Assembly (NCBI GenBank): GCA_027946365.1
Contig: JAPEUQ010000011.1
Coordinates: 1,178,001 to 1,242,000, forward strand
DNA: 64,000 nucleotides
Reading direction: 5' to 3'
From: Kalmusia sp. IMI 367209
Taxonomy: Eukaryota > Ascomycota > Dothideomycetes > Pleosporales > Didymosphaeriaceae
In this document: in pieces, positions 9,981 through 43,712 of the stretch
Numbering within the stretch: position 1 is the stretch's first letter
How the letters are laid out: each line of letters opens with the position of its first letter
Notes under the pieces: generated by a model
Databases searched by the model: none
Seen by the model: only the letters and a program-made list of their open reading frames with translations
What the model was told of the DNA's origin: nothing
Program-made: the position numbers and the translations under genes

Positions 9981-11392
9981 ATGGCACAGCACGACTCTGA
10001 AAGCTTAGCACGAGGCGGTGCACGGCTAGAGAAAATAGTCACTGCGAGTCTTGTGCTGTCATGGCTGTTTATCGCTTTGCGAATATGGACACGGACATAT
10101 CTTAACCCGAGTTTCGGTTGGGATGACTTTACCATAATTCTGGCAGGTGCACGTAACCCCTCGTTTGTCTGATGAGGATTGTGCTCACTCTAGCAGATGA
10201 TATTCACAGCATACTGTGGCTGTATTCTATACATTGAAGGGCATGGTGGCGGAACCCACGTCACCAGCGTAGTTCAGCTGAATGATCTCACAAAGGGAAG
10301 GGCTGTTCCCTACCAAAAAAAATTAAGCTAATTGCTATATAGAGGACTATAGCTAGTGAAGCATCATATATTGCAACTGTGATGGTACTCAAAATATCAC
10401 TGGGCATTTTCTTCGCCCGCATTGTCGTTAAAAGATGGCATCTCATTCTCATCAATATTACAGTGGCAATCAGCTGCGTCTCTGCGACGTCGGCTTTCTT
10501 CTACTGTATTTTTAGATGTGGAGCGAATCTCGAAAACTACGTCTTACGGCAACTATCCCATCGATGCACACCTAAAACGTTGGATCGCTTCTTCGCATAT
10601 CAACACGCAGCTTTTGCTTTTTCGACAGATTGCGTGTTCGTGATGTTACCAATACCTTTGCTCTGGGACACGAACATGAGCCGACGATCAAAGATTTCTG
10701 TAGGGCTCATTATGTCCTTAGCTGCACTGTAAGGATGTTTGAAGAACTTGGTATCCTCTACTAATAGTATAGTGGCTGCGTGTGCTCTGCTATTCGTTTT
10801 CGGTATGTGGACGGTCTAACGCAAGTCGATGATTTCTTCTGTGAGTGAGCTACCGCTGATTATCTGTCGGCATGATGCTAACTAAGTGCTCCACCTAGGG
10901 AACGCTGTGAACATTTCCCTCTGGTCTACTATCGAACCAGGAGCAGGGATAATGGCTAGCTGCATGGCAACCTTAAGACCACTTCTGAAGCGCATATTTG
11001 TCAAAGCACAGTCGATCCACTCAGTCAGATCTCGATCTGCTGGGCCATCTCAATCTACTGAATCTCGCACCACTTCATCAAAGCAGAACAGCGAGCTTCG
11101 GACCGACGACAAGCAGCCAGATTCTCATCAACCCTGCAAATATGACAGCTCATTCCCCGATACCCAGAATCATGAACTTTTTGGATTGAGGTCTATTGAT
11201 ATGTTAAGTTGCGGAAGCACTGAAAATATTCTCTCGCAAGCCGATGCACGATCTTCGATCCAACGAGATGAAGACTTGGGACTCAGTAGAACATACAAGT
11301 GGACATCGCCCCGTCAGAATGCAGAGGCCACATCGAACAAATCGGGTTCAATACTGCACAATGCCATATATGGCAACAAAGGAGATGTTTGA
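9981..11392 (+). CDS. Rhodopsin-like (fungal SAT/PTH11-type) integral membrane protein, five exons, possible frameshift
   Basis: Exon 1 begins MAQHDSESLARGG, then helix 1 and the family signature FGWDDFTIIL. Later exons supply ASYIATVMVLKISLGIFF (exon 3, from 10343 to 10728), the join giving YVDGLTQVDDFFWNAVNIS (exon 4 10773-10840 to exon 5 10899-11392) and STIEPGAGIMASC. All are hallmarks of the fungal rhodopsin-domain family. Introns 10729-10772 and 10841-10898 fit perfectly. The exon 2/3 intron would be only 38 bp (10305-10342). The exon 1/2 join is out of frame by one base if the natural sites (10147, 10196) are used. An acceptor at 10209 restores frame but removes four residues. So this is either a functional gene with an odd splice or a recently broken one. 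The tail is Ser-rich and cytosolic. Confidence 0.7.
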
Positions 11393-30283: not shown

Positions 30284-31346
30284 TTACGGCCATTGCTCCC
30301 TATCCAAAGGCGTCGCATGTTTCACATACCCAATCCTGTTGTCCAGGGTAGTCTGCCTACCATCCGGCACGACAGGACCAAACTTAGGGTGCACGAGCAG
30401 ACCCGGCTCAAACGGATCGACCTTGTTCTTTTCCATGCCCTCCAGCAATCGGTCCCAGTTCACGCACTCGTGCGCGATGGTGCGGTTACCGCCGGGCAGG
30501 ATGGACTCGTTGAACCAGATCATGGTGAGGGGCGTTTCGTCGGCTTTGCACATTACGGCTTCGACGAGCATCTGGAGGCAGTGCACTGGGCGACGAGTTA
30601 GTTGAGCAGCCTGTGGCACAGGGCAAAGAATGATGTAGGGGGCTTACAGCTGTGCTCATGTTGTAGTTCCTTCTCTTCTTCGGTCATGTCGGGCCAGTAG
30701 TAGTCTGGGAAGTATGACTGATGAAGGCGTTTCTGACAAGAACGTTAGGAGTTGTTTCGATAGATGAGGCAAGATACGTACCAGGCAGTGTAATTGATGA
30801 ATGAAAGCATAGTTGGCCAGGTAGTTTCCATTGGGTAGACGAATACCCTCTTTGGTCCGACCAAGCTTCTCCATATACTCTTTCGGTATTTCGGCGTAGA
30901 AGTATTGCATGAGGTTGCTCCAGTTCTTATCGAGCTGGTCGCTGGGCTTGCCGACAAGGTTGTAGTCTTTCGACGTTTCGGTGTGTTTGAAGAATGTAGG
31001 CTGGTACTCGACGTATTCCCTTATCGGAGCTGATGAACGAGCTGTTAGCATGGTTTGGAGGCTGTGGAATGGGATTAGACCTACTATCGATAACATTGGC
31101 CCCGTGGATTCTTTGCTTTTTCCACCATATCGACGTAGCTGTAGTAAGGAGGAGGGAGTACGCAACAAAGACGACGAGGCCGCCAATGGCGACGAGGGCT
31201 TGTCTCTTGCGTGAAGTTTTGTTTCGAGAGCGTCCTGAGGGATAGCCATTGTGAATAAGCTCGTCTGATTCTCTGGCAGAATCAGAGGACTGGTCATCCT
31301 CGATAGGCGAGTATGCCGGCGTAGTATCCTTCTCTAGAAAACCCAT
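30284..31346 (-). CDS. UstYa-family (DUF3328) oxidase of a candidate RiPP cluster
   Basis: Four exons (minus): 31346-31085, 31029-30782, 30732-30648 and 30585-30284, giving 298 aa. An N-terminal cytosolic tail precedes one transmembrane helix (ALVAIGGLVVFVAYSLLL). Both family HxxHC motifs appear after splicing: HQLHC (residues 165-169, just before an exon junction) and HSLHC (197-201, created across the last junction), plus ECVNWDRL near the end. UstYa-type enzymes carry out oxidative macrocyclisation or hydroxylation of ribosomal peptides in ustiloxin, phomopsin and asperipin pathways, and related steps in cyclochlorotine. It is divergently transcribed from the repeat precursor at 32225 with an 878-bp shared promoter, which suggests the precursor is its substrate. 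The start ATG gives the intact tail. Confidence 0.9.
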
Positions 31347-32224
31347 TGCTCAAAGATTGCCTTTGAAGAAGTAGCAAGAAGATGAAAAACCATAAACCAG
31401 AGTTATGCTACTGCAGGAAGAACATAAGAAGCTCGAGTGTAAGCAGGTGGCCTGATGCCTATGGTAGCCGAGGACGAGGAATAGCGGGATGCGCGAATGA
31501 CGAAGAAACAAGCAACACAAGAGGCACTAAGTAAACGCTTGATACGCCCGTCGCCTCTTGATTATCCCGGGTCTGACACCAAGGCACAGATATTAGTCGA
31601 TGAACCTTCCTAAAACAAAGTTTAGGCACCCAAGATCAGCGTCTTCAGCATCATCACAGCGTCTACGTGATTCTCGTCGAGTGGGGAAAAGCGGTGTCGG
31701 CACGGTAGCCATCGAGCACGGCGTTACAATGTGTAGCGTTGACCTTCCTACTGTAGTTTAAAGAGTGATGACGAAGGTTGATGCCGTGGTGGCATTCCTC
31801 CATTCGGTAATAGAGCTAACCTAGGGTACGCATTAGCTGGAGCTTATCAGTTTGTGCCCGTTAACCCGTTACACTCCGCAGCCATACGAGACTTCATCTT
31901 GAAAGCATAAGGTGACGAATCAGTTTCAATTGAGATGTCACTTACCTAAGTCCAAACTGTCGTCTCACGTTGGACTATGCTGACTGGGGTAGGTGAAGAA
32001 GGTGGGCGTGCACACATTGTTCCACTATTCGACGGAGGTTCACCGTACCTTCGTCATTGTAAAGCTGGGTTAGTAACCATCAATAAATCCTCCTTGGTCG
32101 ATCGAGAGGCAAGGCAGAGTACTTGAAGGTCAGCGAGGGCGTCCAGAGACTAGCCCAGTGCTTGCCGTGCCGTGAAGCTCCTCTGTTCTCTTTCTTCGAT
32201 ACACTATCACCATCAACACCCAAT
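31347..32224. promoter_or_regulatory. Divergent promoter of UstYa-like gene and peptide precursor
   Basis: 878 bp with no coding frame between two head-to-head genes, so co-regulation is likely. One CGG-N7-CCG inverted triplet (32033-32045) could be a Zn2Cys6 regulator site, but one such match may arise by chance. Confidence 0.5.
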
Positions 32225-32681
32225 ATGCAGTTTAAACAACTCGCCGTAATTCTTCCTTTGCTCGCATTCGCTTGCGCTTCTCCCATTGCGGAGCCGAGTA
32301 AGTCAATCGAGCGAACACTCCAGTGGAAGCAATCTGACCAGGACAGAGCCTGAGGTTGCAGATGTTGCCGCACGGGGTCAACTCGAAAAGGATTCAGACG
32401 ATGTCTGGCTGTGGAAGCGAGAGGAGGATTCTGATGACATTTGGCTTTGGAAGCGAGCAGAGGACTCTGACGACGTTTGGCTCTGGAAGAAGGGCGAAGA
32501 AGCCGTCAAGCAGCGCGTCAAGCTTGTGAAGGATTCTGATGACGTCTGGCTGTGGAAGAAGCGCGACGTTGCTGGCAAGCGCGACGAGGACTCCGATGAC
32601 ATCTGGCTTTGGAAGCGGGGCGAGGAAACCAAGAAGCGTGCTAAGCTTGTGAAGGATGCAGATGACATCTGGCTGTGGTAG
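32225..32681 (+). CDS. Kexin-processed repeat precursor peptide (candidate RiPP precursor)
   Basis: Exon 1 is 32225-32297: MQFKQLAVILPLLAFACA, a signal peptide, then SPIAEP. Exon 2 starts at 32347 (135 aa) or, with a second phase-compatible acceptor, at 32362 (130 aa). The rest is six core repeats: DSDDVWLW (32391-32414), DSDDIWLW (32427-32450), DSDDVWLW (32463-32486), DSDDVWLW (32532-32555), DSDDIWLW (32589-32612) and DADDIWLW (32655-32678). The last ends exactly at the stop. The first five are followed by KR or KK, kexin (Kex2) sites. Spacers are acidic or basic and two are similar (GEEAVKQRVKLVK, GEETKKRAKLVK). Secretion signal, dibasic-flanked identical cores and a neighbouring UstYa enzyme define a dikaritin-type RiPP precursor. 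The Trp/Asp-rich core is not one I recognise. A secreted pheromone-like peptide is the main alternative. Confidence 0.9.
32391..32678 (+). repeat. Six in-frame core-peptide repeats
   Basis: Each unit encodes D-[S/A]-D-D-[V/I]-W-L-W. At DNA level the copies differ at third positions (TCA/TCT/TCC; GTC/GTT/ATT/ATC; CTG/CTT/CTC), yet the protein hardly changes, which points to purifying selection on the peptide. Units 3-spacer-4 and 5-spacer-6 form a longer duplicated block. Confidence 0.9.
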
Positions 32682-32852: not shown

Positions 32853-34196
32853 CTAGCCAGATGTGTTCTTTAATTGGGCCTGGCGCTTTGGGTTCATTTG
32901 CCCACCAGTCACACGGACTGTAGTTGTTACTGTGATGTCACGGGCGCCCCTGGCAAACCTCTCCTGGCTGTTGTACATATCGTCATCCCAAGCTATCTCC
33001 GCGTGAAGATCGTCCGAACGGTGCAAAGGATTTCTAACATTCTTCATACTAACCTTGTTTTCGTTTCCTGTTGGATTTACATAGCCCTGGGAATTGTACG
33101 ATGGCTTGCTAGCATTTCTACGGTTGCGAATAAGGGCGGCAAAAGCGGGAGCGCAAGCGACAATAACGGCTGGCGAGAATGTCAGTTGATTTGTAAGGAA
33201 GCATGTAGCCGCAATAATACAAGATAAGCATACCCATTGACGTCTCCAAAGTAGTCCACACTTGCATCCATATTGGGTCAGGATTGATAACCCGGCCGCC
33301 ATTGAAACCCGCCTGGCCAAGACGCAATGTCGCGAAGAGGATGCAGACGAAGCCGCTACAAAAGAGAGCATAGATGCCAATCTTTTGACTTCGAGGAATG
33401 GAAAGGTTCCAACAGAGGCGTATAGGAAGGAACATGACTTAGAACAATCAAGAATTAGTAAAACCTTTCATTAGAAGGCGGACTTACATACCCATTAAAT
33501 CAGAAACGACGTCAACGACGTACACATAAATCACACTGGCATTAGTGTTTTTGACCTTGTTCGATCCTCCACAAGTGCCGTTCGTGAAGAAATCACGCAA
33601 GCTTGAGCAAGATAGAGCACTACTTATGATGCATCCTACCCACGACTGTGTTGTGTCAACATGTATCCATACCGCGCGAGAAGTCAACGTACCAGCACAA
33701 TAAAAACGCCGATAGCCCACCAGATATTGTTATATATACTCTTGAGTCCAACAAGTAATTTTCGGTAGAGTGCAAGAAGCGATAGTTTTACAGTTGTGAT
33801 CACACTGTAATAGCATATTTGAGCCGACCATACGAGGCGCGCACTTACTCCGCCGTCTTCCAATATGGTTGGATAAGGCTCAGACTTTCCAGACTGGACA
33901 TCGAAGAGCCTGTATAGTATGGGTACGGAGAGCACGTAGCATATCCACATAGCCACAAAAATAGCGTAGGCGAGGTAGACGAAGCTATCCTGGAGCTCCA
34001 GCGATCTTCTTTTCGCTACATGGATCGCTATGCGGGTAAGGACGACAATTGTTGTCAAGATGAAAAACGCATAATGGGTGCGCAACAATGCTGGTCTCAG
34101 AACTCTTGTCAGCAAGGATTTTCAGAAAGGCATTTGACTAGCAACAAAGGTACGAGCGTAGAATATCACGTTTGGTAGAGCTTTGTTGTATGCCAT
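32853..34196 (-). CDS. Rhodopsin-like seven-helix integral membrane protein, five exons
   Basis: Minus exons 34196-34154, 34090-33693, 33645-33492, 33437-33234 and 33169-32853 give 371 aa; the coding length is a multiple of three. Helices are clear: THYAFFILTTIVVLTRIAI, YLAYAIFVAMWICYVLSVPI, VWSAQICYYSVITTVKLSLL, IWWAIGVFIVLSWVGCII, VIYVYVVDVVSDLMVMFLPI, IGIYALFCSGFVCILFATL and a last helix across VWTTLETSMAVIVACAPAF. Gene layout and motifs match the fungal rhodopsin-domain family. The short first exon (MAYNKALPN) is the least certain part. The tail is polar and cytosolic. It is convergent with the peptide precursor (171 bp apart) and divergent from the FAD oxidase. It could be a receptor, a transporter-like accessory protein or an unrelated neighbour. 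Confidence 0.8.
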
Positions 34197-35485: not shown

Positions 35486-37432
35486 ATGGGGTTCGCGCGC
35501 ATCGTTTCATTATGCGCCCTGGTAGCGAGAGTCCTTGCATTAGCCACTGAGAGCAGCTTTGAACCCACCAACTTTAACGTCACAGCAGCCCTCCTTGCCA
35601 ACGGTGTTAGTTCCGATGATATCCCTAGTATCCAGGCATTGAATGAGCGCTCTTCTCTTGGCTCATGCCCGGTCGCTGTGTGTTTCCCGGTAACTCCCGT
35701 TCCTTGCGCGGCGCTAACACTGGCACAATAACAGTGCCGGGCCTTGGAAACCATATTCGGCAGCACGAAATTGCTCTCGGAAGGCTCATCGGATTACACC
35801 AATTTCACTGGTGCATATTGGTCTGCACAGCAGAATGCAGTCAAGCCTCGCTGTGTCTTTACACCGTCCAAGCCATTGGACGTGTCCACCGCCCTGCTAA
35901 TCTCGCGTCTGACGCAATGCCCTTTTGGTGTGAAGGGTGGTGGCCATGCTGCATTTGCAGGGTCATCTAGCATCGAGGGCGGCATCACTATTGCACTGCA
36001 GAATTTCAAGCAAATTGTACCCTCAGCCGATAGGAAAACAGTCGACGTAGGTCCTGGTAATCGCTGGGTGAATGTCTACCAGACACTAGAACCACAGGGC
36101 CTTAATGTGGTCGGAGGTCGCGTAAGTTGTCGCGTTATTTGCTTATCCATGTTTACATTTAGCTGTTGATGAATGCATACAAGTACGCTCGACTTCCTCT
36201 AGTATTGCGGACTGATCCTTGATAGATTTTTAGTGTCGGTGTTCCAGGCCTCATTCTAGGAGGCGGGATAAGTTTCTTTTCCAATAAGTACGGTTGGGCC
36301 TGCGACAATGTAGCCAGTTACGAAGTCGTTACCGCCTCTGGAAAGACCATCAATGTCACTCCCGTATCATATCCCGACCTATACTGGGCACTACGGGGCG
36401 GAGGTAACAATTTCGGTGTTGTTACAAACTTCAAGCTTAACGCTTTCCCGCTTGGCAAGATGTGAGTAATGTCTCGTTACAAAATAATTTAGTTGGATTG
36501 CACGTGGTCGTGAAAGGAACAAAGTTTCAGCTTTCTTGACACAGGTAACCAGCTGAGACCGAGGGATCTGTTCTTACTTCTACATACTTCTATGAGCTAT
36601 ACTGACTCTATCTCTCTGCGCACTTAGGTGGGGCGGTGGCCGCCTGTACAGCAACGAAAGCTTTCCCGCAGCTCTCGACGCCATATACAAATTTGCCACA
36701 ATAGGCTCCTCAACGGATTTGGACGCTGCCCAAATCATTTCATTCGGATATTCAGAAGGCTTTGGCCCATTAGCAGCAGCGCAGCTTGAACACGCAAAGC
36801 CTATCGAGAATGCATCGGTATTCGACGACTTTAACGCGATTCCCTTCGTCCAATCGACCACTGCAATCCAATATCAATCTGAGATCACAATCACCATGGG
36901 CGAAGGTGTTCCAGACGGAGCCCGCGAGACATATTGGGATGTGTCTTTCAAAGTCGACCGAGGCCTCTTCACCTTCCTCGTCAACACATTCTACGAACTC
37001 CTCCCAGACATCGTCGACGCCGCGAATCTTCTACCAACTATCTCCATCCAAGCCATCACCGAGGGCCAACTTGCCGGTATGCAGAAGAACGGCGGTAATG
37101 CGTTGGGCCTCGACCCTGCCAATGGGCCCTATTTCATCATGAACATGGGCACCATGTGGACTGACATCGCAGACGACGTACGAATCTTAAAATTTCATTC
37201 GGAGGTCATCAAACGTGTGAAAGCGGAAGCGCAGGCCAAGGGTCTCGACAATGATTTTATATACCAGAACTATGCATCACAGTTCGAGGATGTGTTTGGA
37301 AGCTATGGCAAGGCGAATCAGAAAAGGTTGGTGGAGGTGTCGAAGAAGTATGATCCTACTGGGGTATTCCAGAAATTGCAGCCAGGATACTTCAAACTAG
37401 AAGGAGGAGCGCCAAATCCGAATATGCCATGA
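35486..37432 (+). CDS. Secreted BBE-type FAD-linked oxidoreductase, four exons
   Basis: Exons 35486-35689, 35735-36121, 36226-36461 and 36628-37432 give 543 aa. A signal peptide (MGFARIVSLCALVARVLA) is followed by the PCMH FAD-binding domain: PFGVKGGGHAAFAGSS with the His that takes covalent FAD, then VGVPGLILGGGISFFSNKYG and LRGGGNNFGVVTNFKL. The second covalent position (Cys in bicovalent members) reads Ile here (IFSVGVPG), so monocovalent FAD is expected. The berberine-bridge C-terminal region ends NYASQFEDVFGSYG, then SKKYDPTGVFQKLQPGYFK. Such enzymes oxidise sugars, alkaloids or peptide/polyketide intermediates and occur in many fungal biosynthetic clusters. Position beside the UstYa/precursor pair suggests tailoring of the secreted peptide, though a stand-alone carbohydrate oxidase cannot be excluded. 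Confidence 0.88.
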
Positions 37433-37534: not shown

Positions 37535-40500
37535 TTAGTCCGAGTTAGAGGTCGATGACTCAAGCTGTGCTCTCCGCTTAGCCGCCCTTTCCTTTTCCTT
37601 CGCCTTTTCTTTCTTTTTCCTGCTCTTGGGCTTTTCATCCTCTGATGAGTCTGTATCATCACTATCGGAGCCTTGGTCCTTCGCCTTCGATTTCTTGATC
37701 GCCTCAAGCCTACGACGTAGTTCCTTCTCTTCGTCTTCCTTCTCCTTCTTTTTCTCTCTTACGTGTGTCTTCTTCTTTCGCACCTTTTCGTTCTCAAGAC
37801 GGGTCGCGTGGCTAACGCCCATGGTTTCTTCACTATACGGATGTCAGAATTGCTCTCCCCAGGATTTCAGGACAGTACATACAGATAATCATCGAACAAG
37901 GCCACGGTGTTAGCAACTGCTTCGAACTGCGAGCGCCCAAGTTTTACTGTCACCTCACAGTCTTTACCATACGCGTTAGGATCAGTGGGATCGAGACCGG
38001 CAATCTTTGTGCGTGCATCATATTCGGCCATCGCGAGTGCTGTGTGGAACGCGTTACGGATCTGACGACCGTTCCATCGCGCATCTTCAGAAACTCTGTT
38101 GTAATGTTCTCGTGCAAAAGCTTTAATTGCTTTGGTATCAATGTCAAATAGGTGTCTGCGACCAGCGTAAGTCTTCTTAGTACGCTGAATGAAGACTTTG
38201 AAGACTGCTACGGTATCGTCCTCGTCGAAATTTGGATCTTATTTGACAGTCAGTCATAGATCAATACGGAAGAATTTTTGGACTTACAAAAGAGCGAGAG
38301 ATGAATGCGAGACTTGAACGCCTCATCAAATGTGCCGATTCGATTGGTAGTGAGAATGAGAACACCCTTGTAGTATTCTAACCTGTTAGTGGAAGTATAT
38401 TAGCAAATGTCTCCACTAGTATCCATGCATTTGACTTTCTTACATGCGAAGAAACACCGAGACCGTGGCGTTACGGGCATAGTCTTCCTTTGTGCGTTTG
38501 GCCATGAAGACATCCGCTTCGTCAAGTAACAGGATGCAATCCCAACGCGTCGCAGCGTACAGATGGTAAGAGAGATTGCTCTCAATCTCTTTCGCATTGC
38601 TTCCCATATCACCACAAGTCAGAGGGTATAGTGGTTTTTCAACGAGATCGGCGACACATTCTGCTGTTGCGGTCTTGCCCACTCCTGGAGCGCCTAGTTC
38701 GCAGTAAGCCACCATGCGGTTTGTATGAAAGCAAGATAGAAATGAGAGGAATGACTTCGTAGCTGTCGCTCCGAGAGATACTCTTGCTGTTCGTTACGCC
38801 TGCCGTGCAATCCATATTCACGTACCATGGATGAGAATAGTGAGTCCTAGTCCTTTGCCACCCACTAGGTCAAGCCCTTGTCCACCACTTTTTGTTTGAG
38901 ATCTTTTCCTTCTGAAATGCTCTTGTACTTGCGATTGAATCATCTCTTTCGTTTCAGGTGGGAGCACTAGCTGGTTGAACGAAAGGTCTGAACGAGGCCT
39001 ATGTACCTTCGCGACGCTATCAATATGTACGGTACCTGCGAATATTAAGTCTTTGTTCTTGTAGACTTGCAGCATTCCACATACCCCACTTGCGAGAGCG
39101 TAAGAGCCAGCCATAAAGCCTGTGTGTGCATATTGCGAAATCGTTGTCGTTCATTTCTAATTTCTCTTTTAATCTTCTTTCGTTGTAATCGCTAAATAGA
39201 AATCGATCCTTGATGTCCTCATCCATGAAATCTTGATCAATGTAGTGATCAACGACAAAGGGTATCTGTGACGATGTCTCACAGGGCTCAAATGCATAGC
39301 AAAAGTGTGACGTTTCCCTGGCGTCTAGTGGCTCGGGCGCGGAGTATGCAGGTCGTCCAGTATTTCTCGGGTCTCCCCAGTAGTCTTCCATATCCACTAT
39401 CATTTGTTCATCGAGTCTTTCAGTCTTGTTCTGCAGATCTGAACCCCTGCAGTCCAAATGATAACCCGTTTTCTTGGAGCTAACGTATTCCACAAACTTC
39501 CGACCGCGCTCAATCAAAGTATCTTTCGAAGCGTGTCGGTCAGACGCATATTCGAGGGGGAAAACTTCTAGCTCTGTTATCTTACGTTCGCCGGTAAATG
39601 GCATAATGAAAAATCTCCGACGGACGGGAACGATTGTAAAGCCATCGTGGTCAAGATGGTATGTGTCGATCGTAAACGGTATCATTCCGTTGACCTTATG
39701 AGGAGGTGCAGGTGGTTGTCGCGCTTGCGAATGAAGAGGAGGCGGACCCACTGGCGGGCGGGCTTCTTTGCACAGTTCTCGTCTACCACCTTGCACACGC
39801 AAGACCCTCCAAAGAGATGCGTACCAATTAGATGAATCGTAGTCGGAATCCGGATCTCTCTTCATCACTAGATGATCGCCAGGCTGAAAAATGTGCCATA
39901 GGTGGCTGAACGATACTTGCGCAGGCGTCCGCTTGCGATAGTTGTCGTGAACTGGGATCAAGAAACCTTCCACAAGATCCGAGAGACACTTGATAATCGC
40001 TTTAGCATCGTTTGTTGATCTAAAATCCTCTTGCAGCATTTTGTTGCACTCAGCACAGCAAAATAGCTCCAGCCTCGCCAGCATATCGTCGATGGCGTCT
40101 ACTGTTATGTCGACGGAAAATGGCTTGTCGCTGAGCTCATGCGGTCCTTGCTGGCTGCTAACGCCATCCTCGGCATCGCCATCTTGGGGTTCTCCATTTA
40201 CCTCTTTGTCAGTCTTGTTATTCCCATCGTTGGGATTCTCGAGCTCTGTATCAGTTGCCTCCGCTTTCTTCCGGCGCTCCATAGCTTCAGTCTTCTTCTC
40301 ATTTTCATAATCTTCAATCAATCTGGTAAGAGCGCTTAGTTTCTCCTTGAGAAGGGTTTCATTCTTTAAGATGTTCTTGTATGGCCGCAAGATAACAATT
40401 CCCTTCCTACTGTGCTCATGAGGTATATTCGCCTGTTCTCCGAATATGACACGCAGCAGATACTGGATGGAGAAAACATTGATCCGGGCTTGATCTGGCA

Positions 40501-41128
40501 TGTATTTGCCTTTTATTCTCTCCAGCTCTTTGAGGGCTTCTTCGTCTTCATTGGGCCCGGAATGCTTTCGCGAAGACCTTGCGTTGTCAACGGTGCCTGA
40601 ACGTATACGTTTTACAGAATCTTTCCCGGACGACGAAAGTTCTGGATCGCCAATCAAAAGATCGATAGCACAGACATGTTTCGGCTCCGGCTCCGGCTCC
40701 TGATACTTTCCCCAGAACTGAGGGTTGAGGCGAGGTTGGATGATGGGCTTCTCCCCGAGGAAGGACGCTTCTGGAGGTGGGGGTGTACCCGGAGAAGCAG
40801 ACCTCACTCGAGACCTTCTTCTCCGCCCTCCTTGCAGAGAGTCGAATTTTTCAAGAAGCTTGTTGTGATCCAACTGCAATTTTAGAATTAGGCTTTCGAG
40901 ATCTGCCAAACGTAGTTGACTTCCTGTTTCATTTGCACTGCCCTGTGGACCGGTGTTGGCTGAGCTGGTGGAGTCATTGGCTTCCGGGGCGTGTTTACTT
41001 TTTGCATCTTCTGCGACTATAGGTTGCGTTGCTTTCCCTGGCGATGCAACATCATTTCTCTCTAAGGGATCAACAGCGGAGGTGCCAGGGGTGGGTAAAT
41101 CTTGTTCCTTTGCTTCAGTGGCAGACAT
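37535..41128 (-). CDS. Large AAA+ ATPase of the fungal DUF7025-type family, six exons
   Basis: Minus exons 41128-39085, 39035-38826, 38693-38444, 38382-38288, 38237-37883 and 37832-37535 give 1083 aa; all phases agree. The N-terminal half is disordered then a family-specific domain (DLVEGFLIPVHDNYRKR, FTIVPVRRRFFIMPFTGER, ICTHRLYGWLLRSRKWG). The AAA module follows: Walker A GAPGVGKTAT, Walker B ILLLDEADVF, sensor-1 ILTTNRIGTFDEAF, arginine-finger region SRIHLSLFYP. The C-terminus is a Lys/Glu-rich coiled coil with an acidic Ser-rich end. These ATPases are common in filamentous ascomycetes; substrates are unknown. The last exon lies 102 bp from, and convergent with, the FAD oxidase, probably the edge of the cluster. 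Confidence 0.88.
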
Positions 41129-41617
41129 AGCGACTCGGAGATGGTGGTCTGAAGAGCGAATCCAAGGCTTATCTGTTGTGGGACATGCAAGGCTATTAAG
41201 TCATTTCCGCCTCAAGATCCGACATGGACCGTGCGAAACATTGGTTGGAATCTTTGGCCACTTTCTCGCTTGGACAAGCCAGTTGTGGTGCCAGTTGCGG
41301 GAGCGAAAAAAGGCGACCCTTCCTTCACGAGTCTCCTTGCATGCATGATAAGCATGGGCTTGCCTTAGCTGAGATCATAGCGTTAGAGGCGGGCTCGTGT
41401 CGATGGTTGTCAGGGTTGGGGGCGAGCGCGAAGGGCTGTGGTTGGGTTCTCTTGCAGAGCGGGGTCGCACCCTTGTTGAGACGACATCTGCCTGCATAGC
41501 ACTTGCCCTCAGCCTCGCCAGGATGCTCTTCACAGCCCCGCAGCTTGCTCGACATCATGGACTTCAAAAGGTCTTTGATTGCCGTACCATATTTGTGCTT
41601 CTCTCCAAAAGTGACGC
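41129..41617. promoter_or_regulatory. Divergent promoter region of AAA ATPase and STAND-like gene
   Basis: 489 bp between head-to-head genes. Open frames are present but reflect GC content; no domain seen. Confidence 0.4.
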
Positions 41618-43712
41618 ATGGAAAGCATGCTAGCCGTCAGATCGAAGACGTTCCCACTCCCTTCATCGCAAGGCCTTGAAGTTGACTTTCTAGAGAATCG
41701 TCCCTCGGATTTTCAGAAGCCGGGAAGCGCATGCGTTTTCGATGCCAATCGACAGCAGTTCACCCCTAAAGACAATGTGGAGAGATTCAAGGACACAATC
41801 TTCCAGAACGATACCAGTAGGGGCAATCAGATTCAGCTGAAGCATACCCAGGATTCGCTCCAGGCCGCAATCCAGACACTAAAGGACAAGAAAGGCAAGA
41901 AGAATGACGAGATTGCAGCCTTCAACTTATCGGAAGCGCGAACATGGGGAGATGTTGTCACTGCGGTACAAGCAGCCGAAGAGACGTATCTCAAGGATGA
42001 TAGTCCAACTGGAAAGATCAGGAAAGCTTTCCGCAAGGTCGAGGATAATGCCAAATCTATGCAACCCTTCCTCGGCATGCTTCCGGAGGGAGAATACAAG
42101 ACTCTTTGTGGGGGGTTAACATTGATTCTTAAGGTATGCTTTTGCCATTGCGGCATCCGTACTCGAGACCCTAATCCATATAGGGTATGATGAAGAAAGC
42201 CGAAAGGCGACAAAAGATGGCCGAGCTACTCGAGCGACTTCCTATGGCAGTCCAAAATGCCGAGGATTACGCACACATTTATCCCGGCAGGAATACGCTA
42301 CGTTCTTGTATCGGGGAATTGTACATCCAAATAGTCGGAGCAATCGAGGATATGATCCGTTGGTATTTGCAAAAGTCACCAAGTGAGTTTTTTTTCAATT
42401 CGGTCCGTTATATATTAACCTTGCAGAGCGCGGTCTGAAAGCGGTCTTTACAAACGATGCCTACGGAGACAAGCTCACGAAACGGATTAGCGATATCGAC
42501 GCCGCCCAAGCAGTATTCAAAGCAGAGGCTGAGATATATCTACATTGGCGTGCACGACTGATAGAGCATCATGTGGTAGAAACAAACCTGACTACCCAAG
42601 AAATAAGCTTAGACTTGAAGCGCTTGGGTAACACACTTTGGGTCGAAATACAGAAGGCACAAGTGGAGATCCAGAAGTCACAACGAGAGATTGCTGTAGT
42701 TGGATCGCAGGTTATGAACAACGTCTCCGGCGTACTACAAGACCTTCAAAAGAATGCTAAATGTAAATACATGACGACCATTACACGCGAAGCTGACATT
42801 AATAGGGCTACAAGAAAGGGATAAGTGCAAACAAAAGCTTGTGGACCAAGGTGAGTCGCCTCTGGTGGATGTGAAACTTCAACTAACCAATATATAGCGA
42901 CTCGAATTGAAGACCTCGAAAGGCAGCTCCAGAAGAAATCTTTCCGTGCCAGCACGCTGGCTCATCGATTACATATTTCGCTTTCATCACAGGGCCACAT
43001 CACAGATCTAGAAATCTCATTAGCCGCTGGCATCACCCAAAGCACACGCTTCCAAGCTAAATCAAAGTATATTACCGAAACGGAAGAGTTCAGAGAGTGG
43101 TTCACAGCCGAGGAAGGTGGAATGTTATGCGTCAACGGGAACTCAGAGCAAGATTCGCTGTCGCCCACCGCCTTTCTTACATCGCTTATTGTACAAAACA
43201 TGAAGCCGAAGTCGGAAGAAATTCTCGTCCTTTCATTCTTTTGTGGATTACATACCACTGTATTTGAGCAAGGCGAGCACAGAATTGGCGGCCCTACGCT
43301 TCTCCTCCGTACCATAATTACCCAGATTCTGAGTCTGGACGATATCGACGCGAAGCAGTATCTATCGTTCCTCGGCGAGGATGAGGTTCAAGCTATGGAG
43401 TCCATGCAGACGAAGCCGTATCTTGAAACGCTTGGGGAGCTTCTGGCTAATTTGTTACAAGATTATAAGGGCATCTTCATCATCATCGATGGAATCGAGT
43501 TCTACGATAAAGAGGAGTACAAGGGGCGATTGAAGCGTATGATCAAGTTCTTAGCAAAATTGACCACCGAAACCTCCTCGACAAATGGCACTTTGAAAGT
43601 ACTTATCATGGCCTCCTCCCATTCTTCACTTTTTCGCCGGTCTTCGGGCTTCGATGCGCTTGAGATACCGGAGGAGATTGAGTGCGACGGAGAAGGATAC
43701 GAAAGCTTGTGA
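41618..43712 (+). CDS. STAND/NACHT-like protein with degenerate P-loop, five exons
   Basis: Exons 41618-42133, 42184-42382, 42427-42762, 42806-42850 and 42898-43712 give 636 aa. The N-terminal helical domain (SEARTWGDVVTAVQAAEETY, IQIVGAIEDMIRWYLQ) resembles the DUF7708-like effector region of fungal NLR-type proteins. A coiled coil follows (TRIEDLERQLQKK). The C-terminal half looks like a NACHT core: SFFCGLHTTVF, GGPTLLLRTIITQIL, GIFIIIDGIEFYD as Walker B-like strand. Where a Walker A should stand (about residues 440-455, LCVNGNSEQDSLSP) there is no GKS/GKT. No ankyrin, WD or TPR repeats follow before the stop. It may be a decoy or regulator of NLR-like incompatibility proteins, or a truncated member. 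ATG 41627 is an alternative start. Confidence 0.7.

What the first reader, a model, noticed from the sequence alone, without database searches (positions are those of the whole stretch)
32225..32681. Unrecognised kexin-processed repeat precursor with Trp/Asp-rich core (D-S-D-D-V/I-W-L-W)
Seen: a signal peptide followed by six almost identical eight-residue cores, five of them followed by KR or KK, the last ending at the stop. Known: this is the layout of fungal KEP-type precursors, including dikaritin RiPPs such as ustiloxin, phomopsin and asperipin. Inference: the locus makes a new ribosomal peptide, possibly cyclised through Trp or Asp/Ser side chains. I do not recognise the core from any described product.
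Basis: partly seen in the sequence, partly recalled or inferred. Interest (0 to 1): 0.93.

Follow-up and report, generated by a model that had tools for sequence, protein, structure and literature searches.

The report
Tryptophan-core fungal repeat peptide precursor
A fungus encodes a small protein, probably secreted, made of six copies of nearly the same eight-residue peptide, next to a gene for a copper enzyme of the family that ties such peptides into rings; the same pair occurs in other fungi, and the core has tryptophan where known relatives usually have tyrosine, so it probably marks an uncharacterised fungal peptide family.

Summary
Window 32225-32681 (+) encodes, over two exons, 130 residues: a signal-peptide-like start, then six D-[SA]-D-D-[VI]-W-L-W cores, five followed by KR or KK, the last ending at the stop. 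Among the cores pS is 0.85, pN 0.047.

The window is from Kalmusia sp. IMI 367209. Eleven usable homologous precursors plus this one share D-x-D-x-[IV]-W-L-W in 48 of 48 copies; 12 of 12 end in WLW. For 6 of the 10 named homologs, a UstYa ortholog of the same organism lies on a contig of the same length.

Best reading: a Kex2-type repeat precursor whose core is modified, probably ring-closed, by the neighbouring copper oxidase; a dikaritin in the DUF3328 sense. With no core Tyr and no tyrosinase or S41 peptidase match in the window, it is not a ustiloxin or phomopsin. The nine other UstYa-linked repeat precursors found here all contain Tyr. Product, cross-link and function are unshown.

The parts
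32225..32297 (+). Precursor exon 1: start codon and hydrophobic signal-peptide-like segment MQFKQLAVILPLLAFACASPIAEP
   Evidence: Translation; the start is conserved in the homologs.
32298..32361 (+). Precursor intron (GTAAGT...TTGCAG, 64 nt)
   Evidence: reading through it meets a stop (32087-32353 frame). Splicing is inferred, no transcript seen.
32362..32681 (+). Precursor exon 2: six D-[SA]-D-D-[VI]-W-L-W cores, dibasic spacers, stop directly after the sixth core
32391..32414 (+). Core 1 DSDDVWLW (then KR)
32427..32450 (+). Core 2 DSDDIWLW (then KR)
32463..32486 (+). Core 3 DSDDVWLW (then KK)
32532..32555 (+). Core 4 DSDDVWLW (then KKR)
32589..32612 (+). Core 5 DSDDIWLW (then KR)
32655..32678 (+). 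Core 6 DADDIWLW, C-terminal, ends at the stop
   Evidence: a terminal WLW in 12 of 12 family members counted.
30284..31346 (-). UstYa/DUF3328 oxidase gene, four exons, 298 aa, one N-terminal hydrophobic helix, two HxxHC motifs; divergent from the precursor
   Evidence: Spliced (introns 31084-31030, 30781-30733, 30647-30586); PF11807 8.9e-41, 140.6 bits; 99% identical to N0V90_009890 of Kalmusia sp. IMI 367209; both motifs invariant in the 16 aligned sequences; helix 46-79 in the model.
31347..32224 (.). 878-bp intergenic region between the two divergent start codons, possible shared promoter
   Evidence: Distance computed; shared control is inference.
32853..34121 (-). Fungal rhodopsin-domain membrane protein (fragmentary gene model), convergent with the precursor; membership in the cluster unproven
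   Evidence: PF20684 6.7e-08 on 33684-34121; 32853-33467 gave no Pfam match.
35732..37432 (+). FAD_binding_4/BBE oxidase (fragmentary gene model); candidate tailoring enzyme, membership unproven
   Evidence: PF01565 3.3e-11 and PF08031 1e-05 on two ORFs.

Best explanation
The gene encodes a secreted multi-copy precursor (a KEP). It enters the secretory pathway through its signal peptide, is cut at the dibasic sites after each core by Kex2 or a like protease, and is trimmed to a peptide ending in Trp. The membrane-bound binuclear-copper oxidase encoded head-to-head with it (UstYa family) then oxidises the core. The most likely reaction is a side-chain cross-link that uses a Trp of the fixed [IV]-W-L-W end, for example indole to a beta-carbon of Val/Ile/Leu or to the other Trp. 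That would give a small secreted cyclic peptide shared by Xylariales-type fungi and Didymosphaeriaceae. Shown here: the repeat precursor, the purifying pattern among its cores, the adjacent UstYa with both copper motifs, and the recurring pairing in other fungi. Inferred: splicing, secretion, cleavage, order of steps, modification, ring formation and export.
For: Repeat anatomy and pS 0.85 against pN 0.047. UstYa hit with 140.6 bits and six invariant His/Cys residues in HxxHC...HxxHC over 16 sequences (16 of the 39 hits were aligned), the motif that PMC12435403 (abstract and passages) shows to hold two copper ions. Precursor and UstYa ortholog in the same organism and on a contig of the same length for FL1272 (593282), FL0255 (265514), Xylaria scruposa (894332), Biscogniauxia mediterranea (115179), FL0641 (142785) and Xylaria sp. 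CBS 124048 (858724), i.e. 6 of 10 named precursors; in four the database numbers are 1 or 2 apart, in two (FL0255, FL0641) they are far apart. Core D-x-D-x-[IV]-W-L-W in 48 of 48 copies and a terminal WLW in 12 of 12. 9 of 20 other UstYa loci of this genome also carry a repeat precursor, so the genome uses this design widely. PMC7329392 (abstract and sections 6 and 7) reports that 22% of KEPs have DUF3328 neighbours and that KEPs annotated as mating factors or pheromones, with three exceptions, do not.
Against: No transcript, peptide or mass was seen. 25 of 36 internal cores in the family are followed by KK, which I recall to be a poorer Kex2 site than KR. DUF3328 enzymes also hydroxylate, halogenate and desaturate, so a ring is not implied by the gene. 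No enzyme of this family acting on Trp turned up in the listings and passages seen. Of the 27 named UstYa rows, 6 pair with a precursor row and one is Kalmusia itself; the other 20 (Eutypa, Apiospora, several Xylaria, Sordariales-type genera and others) have no matching precursor row. Missing annotation may explain this, since the Kalmusia precursor, present in this window, is not either; but loss or another substrate is not excluded. The four other named precursors (P0004, P0007, P0008, P0009) had no UstYa row of equal contig length; that list is incomplete (529 candidates, one row per 90% cluster).
Confidence: 0.75

Rival explanations
1. A linear secreted signalling peptide, like the alpha-type pheromones, released from the repeat by Kex2 and not modified; the UstYa gene is a neighbour with another job, and the rhodopsin-like gene next door might even be a receptor.
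For: The core is nearly fixed across fungi of different classes, which fits a receptor ligand; PMC7329392 section 6 notes closely spaced W's (W-x-W) in mating-factor KEPs; a Fung_rhodopsin gene lies convergent at 32853-34121.
Against: The UstYa pairing recurs for 6 of 10 named homologs, whereas KEPs annotated as pheromones, with three exceptions, have no DUF3328 neighbour (PMC7329392 abstract). No Pfam pheromone model matches, though I do not know how well Pfam covers pheromones of filamentous fungi.
Confidence: 0.1
2. A UstYa-modified peptide without a ring: the enzyme hydroxylates, chlorinates or desaturates the core (for example on Trp or Leu).
For: DUF3328 proteins do such chemistry: CctR hydroxylates cyclochlorotine (PMC12435403 passages); PMC12048977 section 22 lists hydroxylation and chlorination. 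No Tyr is present for the known ether rings.
Against: In the passages read, the described products of multi-core precursors with UstYa-type clusters (ustiloxin, phomopsin, asperipin) are rings, and victorin is described with a Phe-Leu ring rather than a Tyr link (PMC9233826 passages).
Confidence: 0.12
3. A structural or wall-associated repeat protein, or a decayed relic, whose repeats are not released.
For: No expression evidence; many sites after the core are KK rather than KR.
Against: Strong silent-to-replacement contrast, intact frame, and conservation of the exact C-terminal WLW in 12 of 12 counted precursors suggest that the core's C-terminus matters after release.
Confidence: 0.03

Closest known systems
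Asperipin-2a cluster (aprA, aprY, aprT, aprR; Aspergillus flavus)
   Same: KEP precursor with a single UstYa-family gene and no tyrosinase among its four genes (PMC6514808 passages).
   Different: Core FYYTGY is cross-linked through Tyr ethers; here there is no Tyr, and the core is D-x-D-x-[IV]-W-L-W. Among the 30 ORFs scanned the only transporter-like match is an amino acid permease about 19 kb away, and no isoflavone reductase was seen.
Victorin cluster (Cochliobolus victoriae)
   Same: Multi-core precursor; ring described between a C-terminal aromatic (Phe) and an internal Leu (PMC9233826 passages), which resembles a C-terminal Trp with an internal Leu. Also a Pleosporales fungus (recalled).
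   Different: Different organism and product; the victorin paper is not held, so no victorin sequence was compared.
Ustiloxin and phomopsin dikaritins
   Same: Signal peptide, repeated cores with KR sites, UstYa-family oxidase.
   Different: Those are cyclised through core Tyr and need a tyrosinase (PMC6514808 passages; PMC7329392 section 7); the window has no tyrosinase or S41 peptidase match and the core has no Tyr.
KEP type P-3 of Umemura 2020 (Fonsecaea, Cladophialophora, Galerina, Psilocybe, Coprinellus)
   Same: Trp-containing repeat type; 4 of its 7 KEPs have a DUF3328 neighbour (PMC7329392 sections 6 and 7).
   Different: Described as W accompanied by P; its genera do not overlap with the ones found here. 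The profile figure and supplementary lists could not be read, so identity is not excluded by sequence.

Membership tests
KEP (Kex2-processed repeat protein) | Signal peptide at the N-terminus | tested here: inconclusive
   Hydrophobic start with an A-x-A-like end, conserved in the homologs; no predictor run.
KEP (Kex2-processed repeat protein) | Several near-identical cores | tested here: met
   Six copies; at most two in 300 shuffles.
KEP (Kex2-processed repeat protein) | Dibasic cleavage sites between cores | tested here: met
   KR, KR, KK, KKR, KR in the window; across the family 25 KK, 5 KR, 4 KE, 2 KT of 36 internal cores. That Kex2 cuts them is not shown.
Dikaritin (DUF3328 definition, as cited in PMC12048977 section 22) | DUF3328/UstYa gene beside the precursor | tested here: met
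   PF11807 140.6 bits, 878 bp away; pairing for 6 of 10 named homologs.
Dikaritin (DUF3328 definition, as cited in PMC12048977 section 22) | HxxHC(x)nHxxHC copper motif in the oxidase | tested here: met
   HQLHC and HSLHC; H169, H172, C173, H201, H204, C205 (P0012 numbering) invariant in 16 of 16 rows.
Dikaritin (DUF3328 definition, as cited in PMC12048977 section 22) | Modified, usually cyclic, core | not testable with these tools
   Needs mass spectrometry.
Ustiloxin/phomopsin subfamily | Tyr in the core | tested here: not met
   0 Tyr in the mature region of this precursor; no core position in the 48 family cores holds Tyr.
Ustiloxin/phomopsin subfamily | Tyrosinase homolog in the cluster | tested here: not met
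   37 tyrosinase matches in the genome, 0 within the window.
Ustiloxin/phomopsin subfamily | S41 peptidase in the cluster | tested here: not met
   8 matches in the genome, 0 within the window.
Fungal alpha-type pheromone | Pheromone profile match | tested here: inconclusive
   No Pfam pheromone match at E up to 1; Pfam's coverage of filamentous-fungus pheromones is unknown to me.
Fungal alpha-type pheromone | No DUF3328 neighbour (true of pheromone KEPs with three exceptions, PMC7329392 abstract) | tested here: not met
   UstYa gene 878 bp away.

The most novel reading that the evidence does not exclude
The copper enzyme makes a ring through tryptophan (indole to Leu/Val/Ile beta-carbon, or Trp to Trp) in a Tyr-free core. 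This would be a reaction not described for UstYa enzymes in the listings and passages seen here, defining a fungal peptide family whose product is shared by Xylariales-type fungi and Pleosporales and may have passed between the classes by gene transfer.
Probability: 0.4. Interest if true: 0.75.

Novelty: new variant of a known kind. Interest (0 to 1): 0.55.

Why it matters
If true, it gives a small, clean pair (one precursor, one copper oxidase) with which to ask what residues DUF3328 enzymes can cross-link besides Tyr. In the passages read, the described rings go through Tyr, with victorin's Phe-Leu ring as the exception. A nearly fixed core across fungi of different classes is also unusual against a background where KEP repeats are described as highly diverse (PMC7329392 abstract), and it suggests one conserved target or role. 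The Kalmusia genome, with nine further UstYa-linked repeat precursors in the 20 loci examined, would be a productive source of fungal RiPPs.

Tried and rejected
Alpha-pheromone: considered because of the W-x-W note in PMC7329392; set aside for the UstYa pairing. The lack of a Pfam pheromone match adds little.

Second copy in the genome: the precursor search of the own genome gave only this gene's two exons and one weak match on C29 (E 1.81, 23%), taken as chance.

Pfam, NCBIfam and PDB: no match above cut-off for the window precursor (Pfam), for 8 of the 11 homologs (Pfam) or for 3 precursors (P0051, P0005, P0001) and P0012 (NCBIfam). The protein database lists PF28562.1 for P0051, but the Pfam scan of P0051 did not report it; what it is stays open. 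PDB matches to the UstYa protein are weak and chance-like (best E 0.045, a viral capsid).

Structure: the AlphaFold model of the UstYa protein came out poor (mean pLDDT 49), so no fold search was run.

Rows dropped: P0011 (33% identity, core unlike D-x-D), P0052 and P0053 (metagenome calls that seem to read the same repeat partly out of frame) and P0054 (E 9.7) were left out of the counts. In P0002 the one Tyr and two Cys counted lie in its extended N-terminus, before the usual MQFKQ start. The tree used 25 of the 39 UstYa hits.

Gene transfer: the UstYa tree places Kalmusia and Karstenula among Xylariales (fork support 85/84, not starred), and one clade of the five Dothideomycetes is rejected (AU p 0.0089). 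One clade of the Xylariales without them is only borderline (p 0.052). The groups were named after seeing the identity table, several rows are truncated and paralogy is not excluded, so I claim only a lead.

Survey of UstYa loci: only 20 of about 55 loci (my count by eye, taken roughly in order of score) were fetched and scanned. In L019 one frame was counted; the scan also reported three overlapping frames of the same stretch.

Pattern search for further WLW-dibasic sites was uninformative: 11 matches, two of them in this precursor, against 13 for the control, and the pattern did not cover the AAG-CGN form of KR.

Full report
WHAT IS THERE. Exon 1 (32225-32297) gives MQFKQLAVILPLLAFACASPIAEP; a 64-nt GT-AG intron (32298-32361) follows; exon 2 runs to the stop at 32681. 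The protein has 130 residues. Its six cores are DSDDVWLW, DSDDIWLW, DSDDVWLW, DSDDVWLW, DSDDIWLW and DADDIWLW; the first five are followed by KR, KR, KK, KKR and KR, and the sixth ends at the stop. The copies have diverged at the DNA level but not in the peptide: 51 silent against 14 replacement differences over the 15 copy pairs, pS 0.85, pN 0.047. Shuffling the mature region 300 times never gave more than two near-copies.

ORGANISM. The UstYa protein beside it is 99% identical to N0V90_009890 of Kalmusia sp. IMI 367209, listed on a contig of 1,530,639 bases. The window's own contig has exactly that length. Kalmusia is in Didymosphaeriaceae, Pleosporales. The precursor itself was not returned from Kalmusia by the protein search, so it seems to be unannotated there.

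THE NEIGHBOUR THAT MATTERS. On the opposite strand, 878 bp from the precursor's start, lies a four-exon gene whose 298-residue product matches PF11807 (UstYa) with 140.6 bits. It has two HxxHC motifs, whose six His/Cys are invariant in 16 aligned sequences. The paper on CctR (PMC12435403; abstract and passages seen) shows that this motif holds two copper ions in a DUF3328 enzyme. A passage of PMC12186524 says that UstY enzymes use a dicopper site for oxidations such as the Tyr-O to Phe-C-beta link of asperipin-2a. The deposited model P0012 has four extra residues at the first splice junction; the other 15 aligned rows lack them, as does my splice.

RELATIVES. The protein search found eleven proteins at E up to 10, the profile search fourteen (only the 7996 candidates sharing most words were scored). 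Eleven of these are usable family members (P0001-P0010, P0051); P0011 and P0052-P0054 were dropped for the reasons given under Tried and rejected. With the window this makes 12 precursors and 48 cores. The pattern D-x-D-x-[IV]-W-L-W holds in 48 of 48; the script was anchored on WLW, so the two Asp and the Val/Ile are the independent part. 12 of 12 precursors end exactly in WLW. Internal cores are followed by KK in 25 of 36 (five of them KKR), KR in 5, KE in 4 and KT in 2; the KE and KT ones read on as KEKR, KEKKR or KTKR. Nine of the ten named homologs are, by recalled taxonomy, Xylariales-type fungi; the tenth is Thyridium curvatum.

LINKAGE. Ten of the eleven homologs come from named organisms (two are B. 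mediterranea). For six, the UstYa search lists an ortholog of the same organism on a contig of the same length: FL1272 593282, FL0255 265514, Xylaria scruposa 894332, Biscogniauxia mediterranea 115179, FL0641 142785, Xylaria sp. CBS 124048 858724. In four of these the database numbers differ by one or two (474023/474021, 445704/445705, 645333/645331, 690495/690496); in FL0255 (401752/378939) and FL0641 (783360/697121) they do not, which says nothing either way. For the other four precursors no such row appeared; one search scored 529 candidates and shows one row per 90% cluster. Seen from the enzyme, 27 of the 39 UstYa rows are named; 6 pair with a precursor row, one is Kalmusia, and 20 have none. 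I could not fetch these fungal loci, so distances are not measured.

IN THE SAME GENOME. The Kalmusia genome gave 102 exon-level UstYa matches. Nine of the 20 hold a repeat ORF with dibasic sites: L012, L014, L018, L019, L023, L024, L026, L027, L028. The same scan over the 64-kb window finds only the given locus. All nine have Tyr in the repeated unit; the window's precursor has none. PMC7329392 section 7 reports Tyr in 65.6% of repeats with a DUF3328 neighbour and 38.2% without, so a Tyr-free core is a minority but known case there; W content was similar in both sets (20.5% and 24.5%), and its type P-3 has Trp with Pro.

HOW IT PROBABLY WORKS. Secretion, dibasic cleavage and trimming to a C-terminal Trp follow the ustiloxin model as described in PMC6514808 and PMC9233826 (passages). 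Oxidation by the neighbouring copper enzyme is inferred from pairing and motif. A ring through Trp is my preferred reading because the WLW end is the fixed part and no Tyr is available. The closest precedent I read of is victorin, described as cyclised between the C-terminal Phe and an internal Leu (PMC9233826 passages). Hydroxylation, halogenation or desaturation remain open.

WHAT IT IS NOT. No tyrosinase (0 of 37 genome matches) and no S41 peptidase (0 of 8) fall in the window. In Pfam scans of 30 ORFs (10 each; one search lists 117 ORFs of at least 110 aa in the window) the only other plausible tailoring gene near the pair is an FAD_binding_4/BBE oxidase at about 35.7-37.4 kb, with a rhodopsin-like membrane protein between. 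Short exons were not scanned, so a cytochrome P450 or transporter with small exons could be missed.

EVOLUTION. The UstYa tree (25 rows) puts Kalmusia and Karstenula with Xylariales (fork 85/84) and apart from Clathrospora, Periconia and Pleomassaria. One Dothideomycete clade is rejected (p 0.0089), a Xylariales clade without the two is borderline (p 0.052). Transfer between classes is a lead; paralogy is not excluded.

LITERATURE. Six core strings were searched in the paper library: two papers held one of them, both on non-coding RNA by title and abstract start. Searches on dikaritin, UstYa, DUF3328 and Trp, on Xylaria/Hypoxylon and on Kalmusia listed no title or abstract start on this peptide; most of these lists were capped (for example 20 of 5,544 papers, 15 of 36, 8 of 9) and I opened only the papers cited. 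The main texts of PMC6339444 and PMC12048977 do not hold the string WLW. PMC8403587 mentions an ustiloxin-like RiPP cluster in Hypomontagnella and Hypoxylon species (passages); its precursors were not compared. Supplementary tables of KEP surveys could not be read, so the type may be listed there without comment.

Noticed in passing
L012, L014, L018, L019, L023, L024, L026, L027, L028 (G000 stretches): Nine further UstYa-linked repeat precursors in the same genome, e.g. a TNIYPGIKYLGDEDE-type repeat of about 11 copies (L014 2481-3221, -) and a DEDAAKYSKR-type repeat of about 20 copies (L024 1480-2331, -); each has Tyr in the repeated unit.
   Followed up: partly
UstYa gene, window 30284-31346: Its tree position among Xylariales orthologs and the rejection of one Dothideomycete clade (p 0.0089) hint at transfer between fungal classes.
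   Followed up: partly
P0010 (Xylariomycetidae sp. FL0641): This homolog alternates two kinds of repeat: the DSDAVWLW core and a second one ending GGPSVIWPAKR, also with Trp and no Tyr.
   Followed up: no
P0051: The database lists Pfam PF28562.1 for this homolog; the Pfam scan here does not report it, so a newer family model may touch these precursors.
   Followed up: no
window 10343-10732 and 32853-34121: Two Fung_rhodopsin membrane-protein genes in one 64-kb window, one convergent with the precursor.
   Followed up: no
window 37867-43712: An AAA ATPase with DUF7025 and AAA_lid_13 on the - strand and an NPHP3_N-domain ORF on the + strand, a type often seen in fungal NLR-like proteins (recalled).
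   Followed up: no
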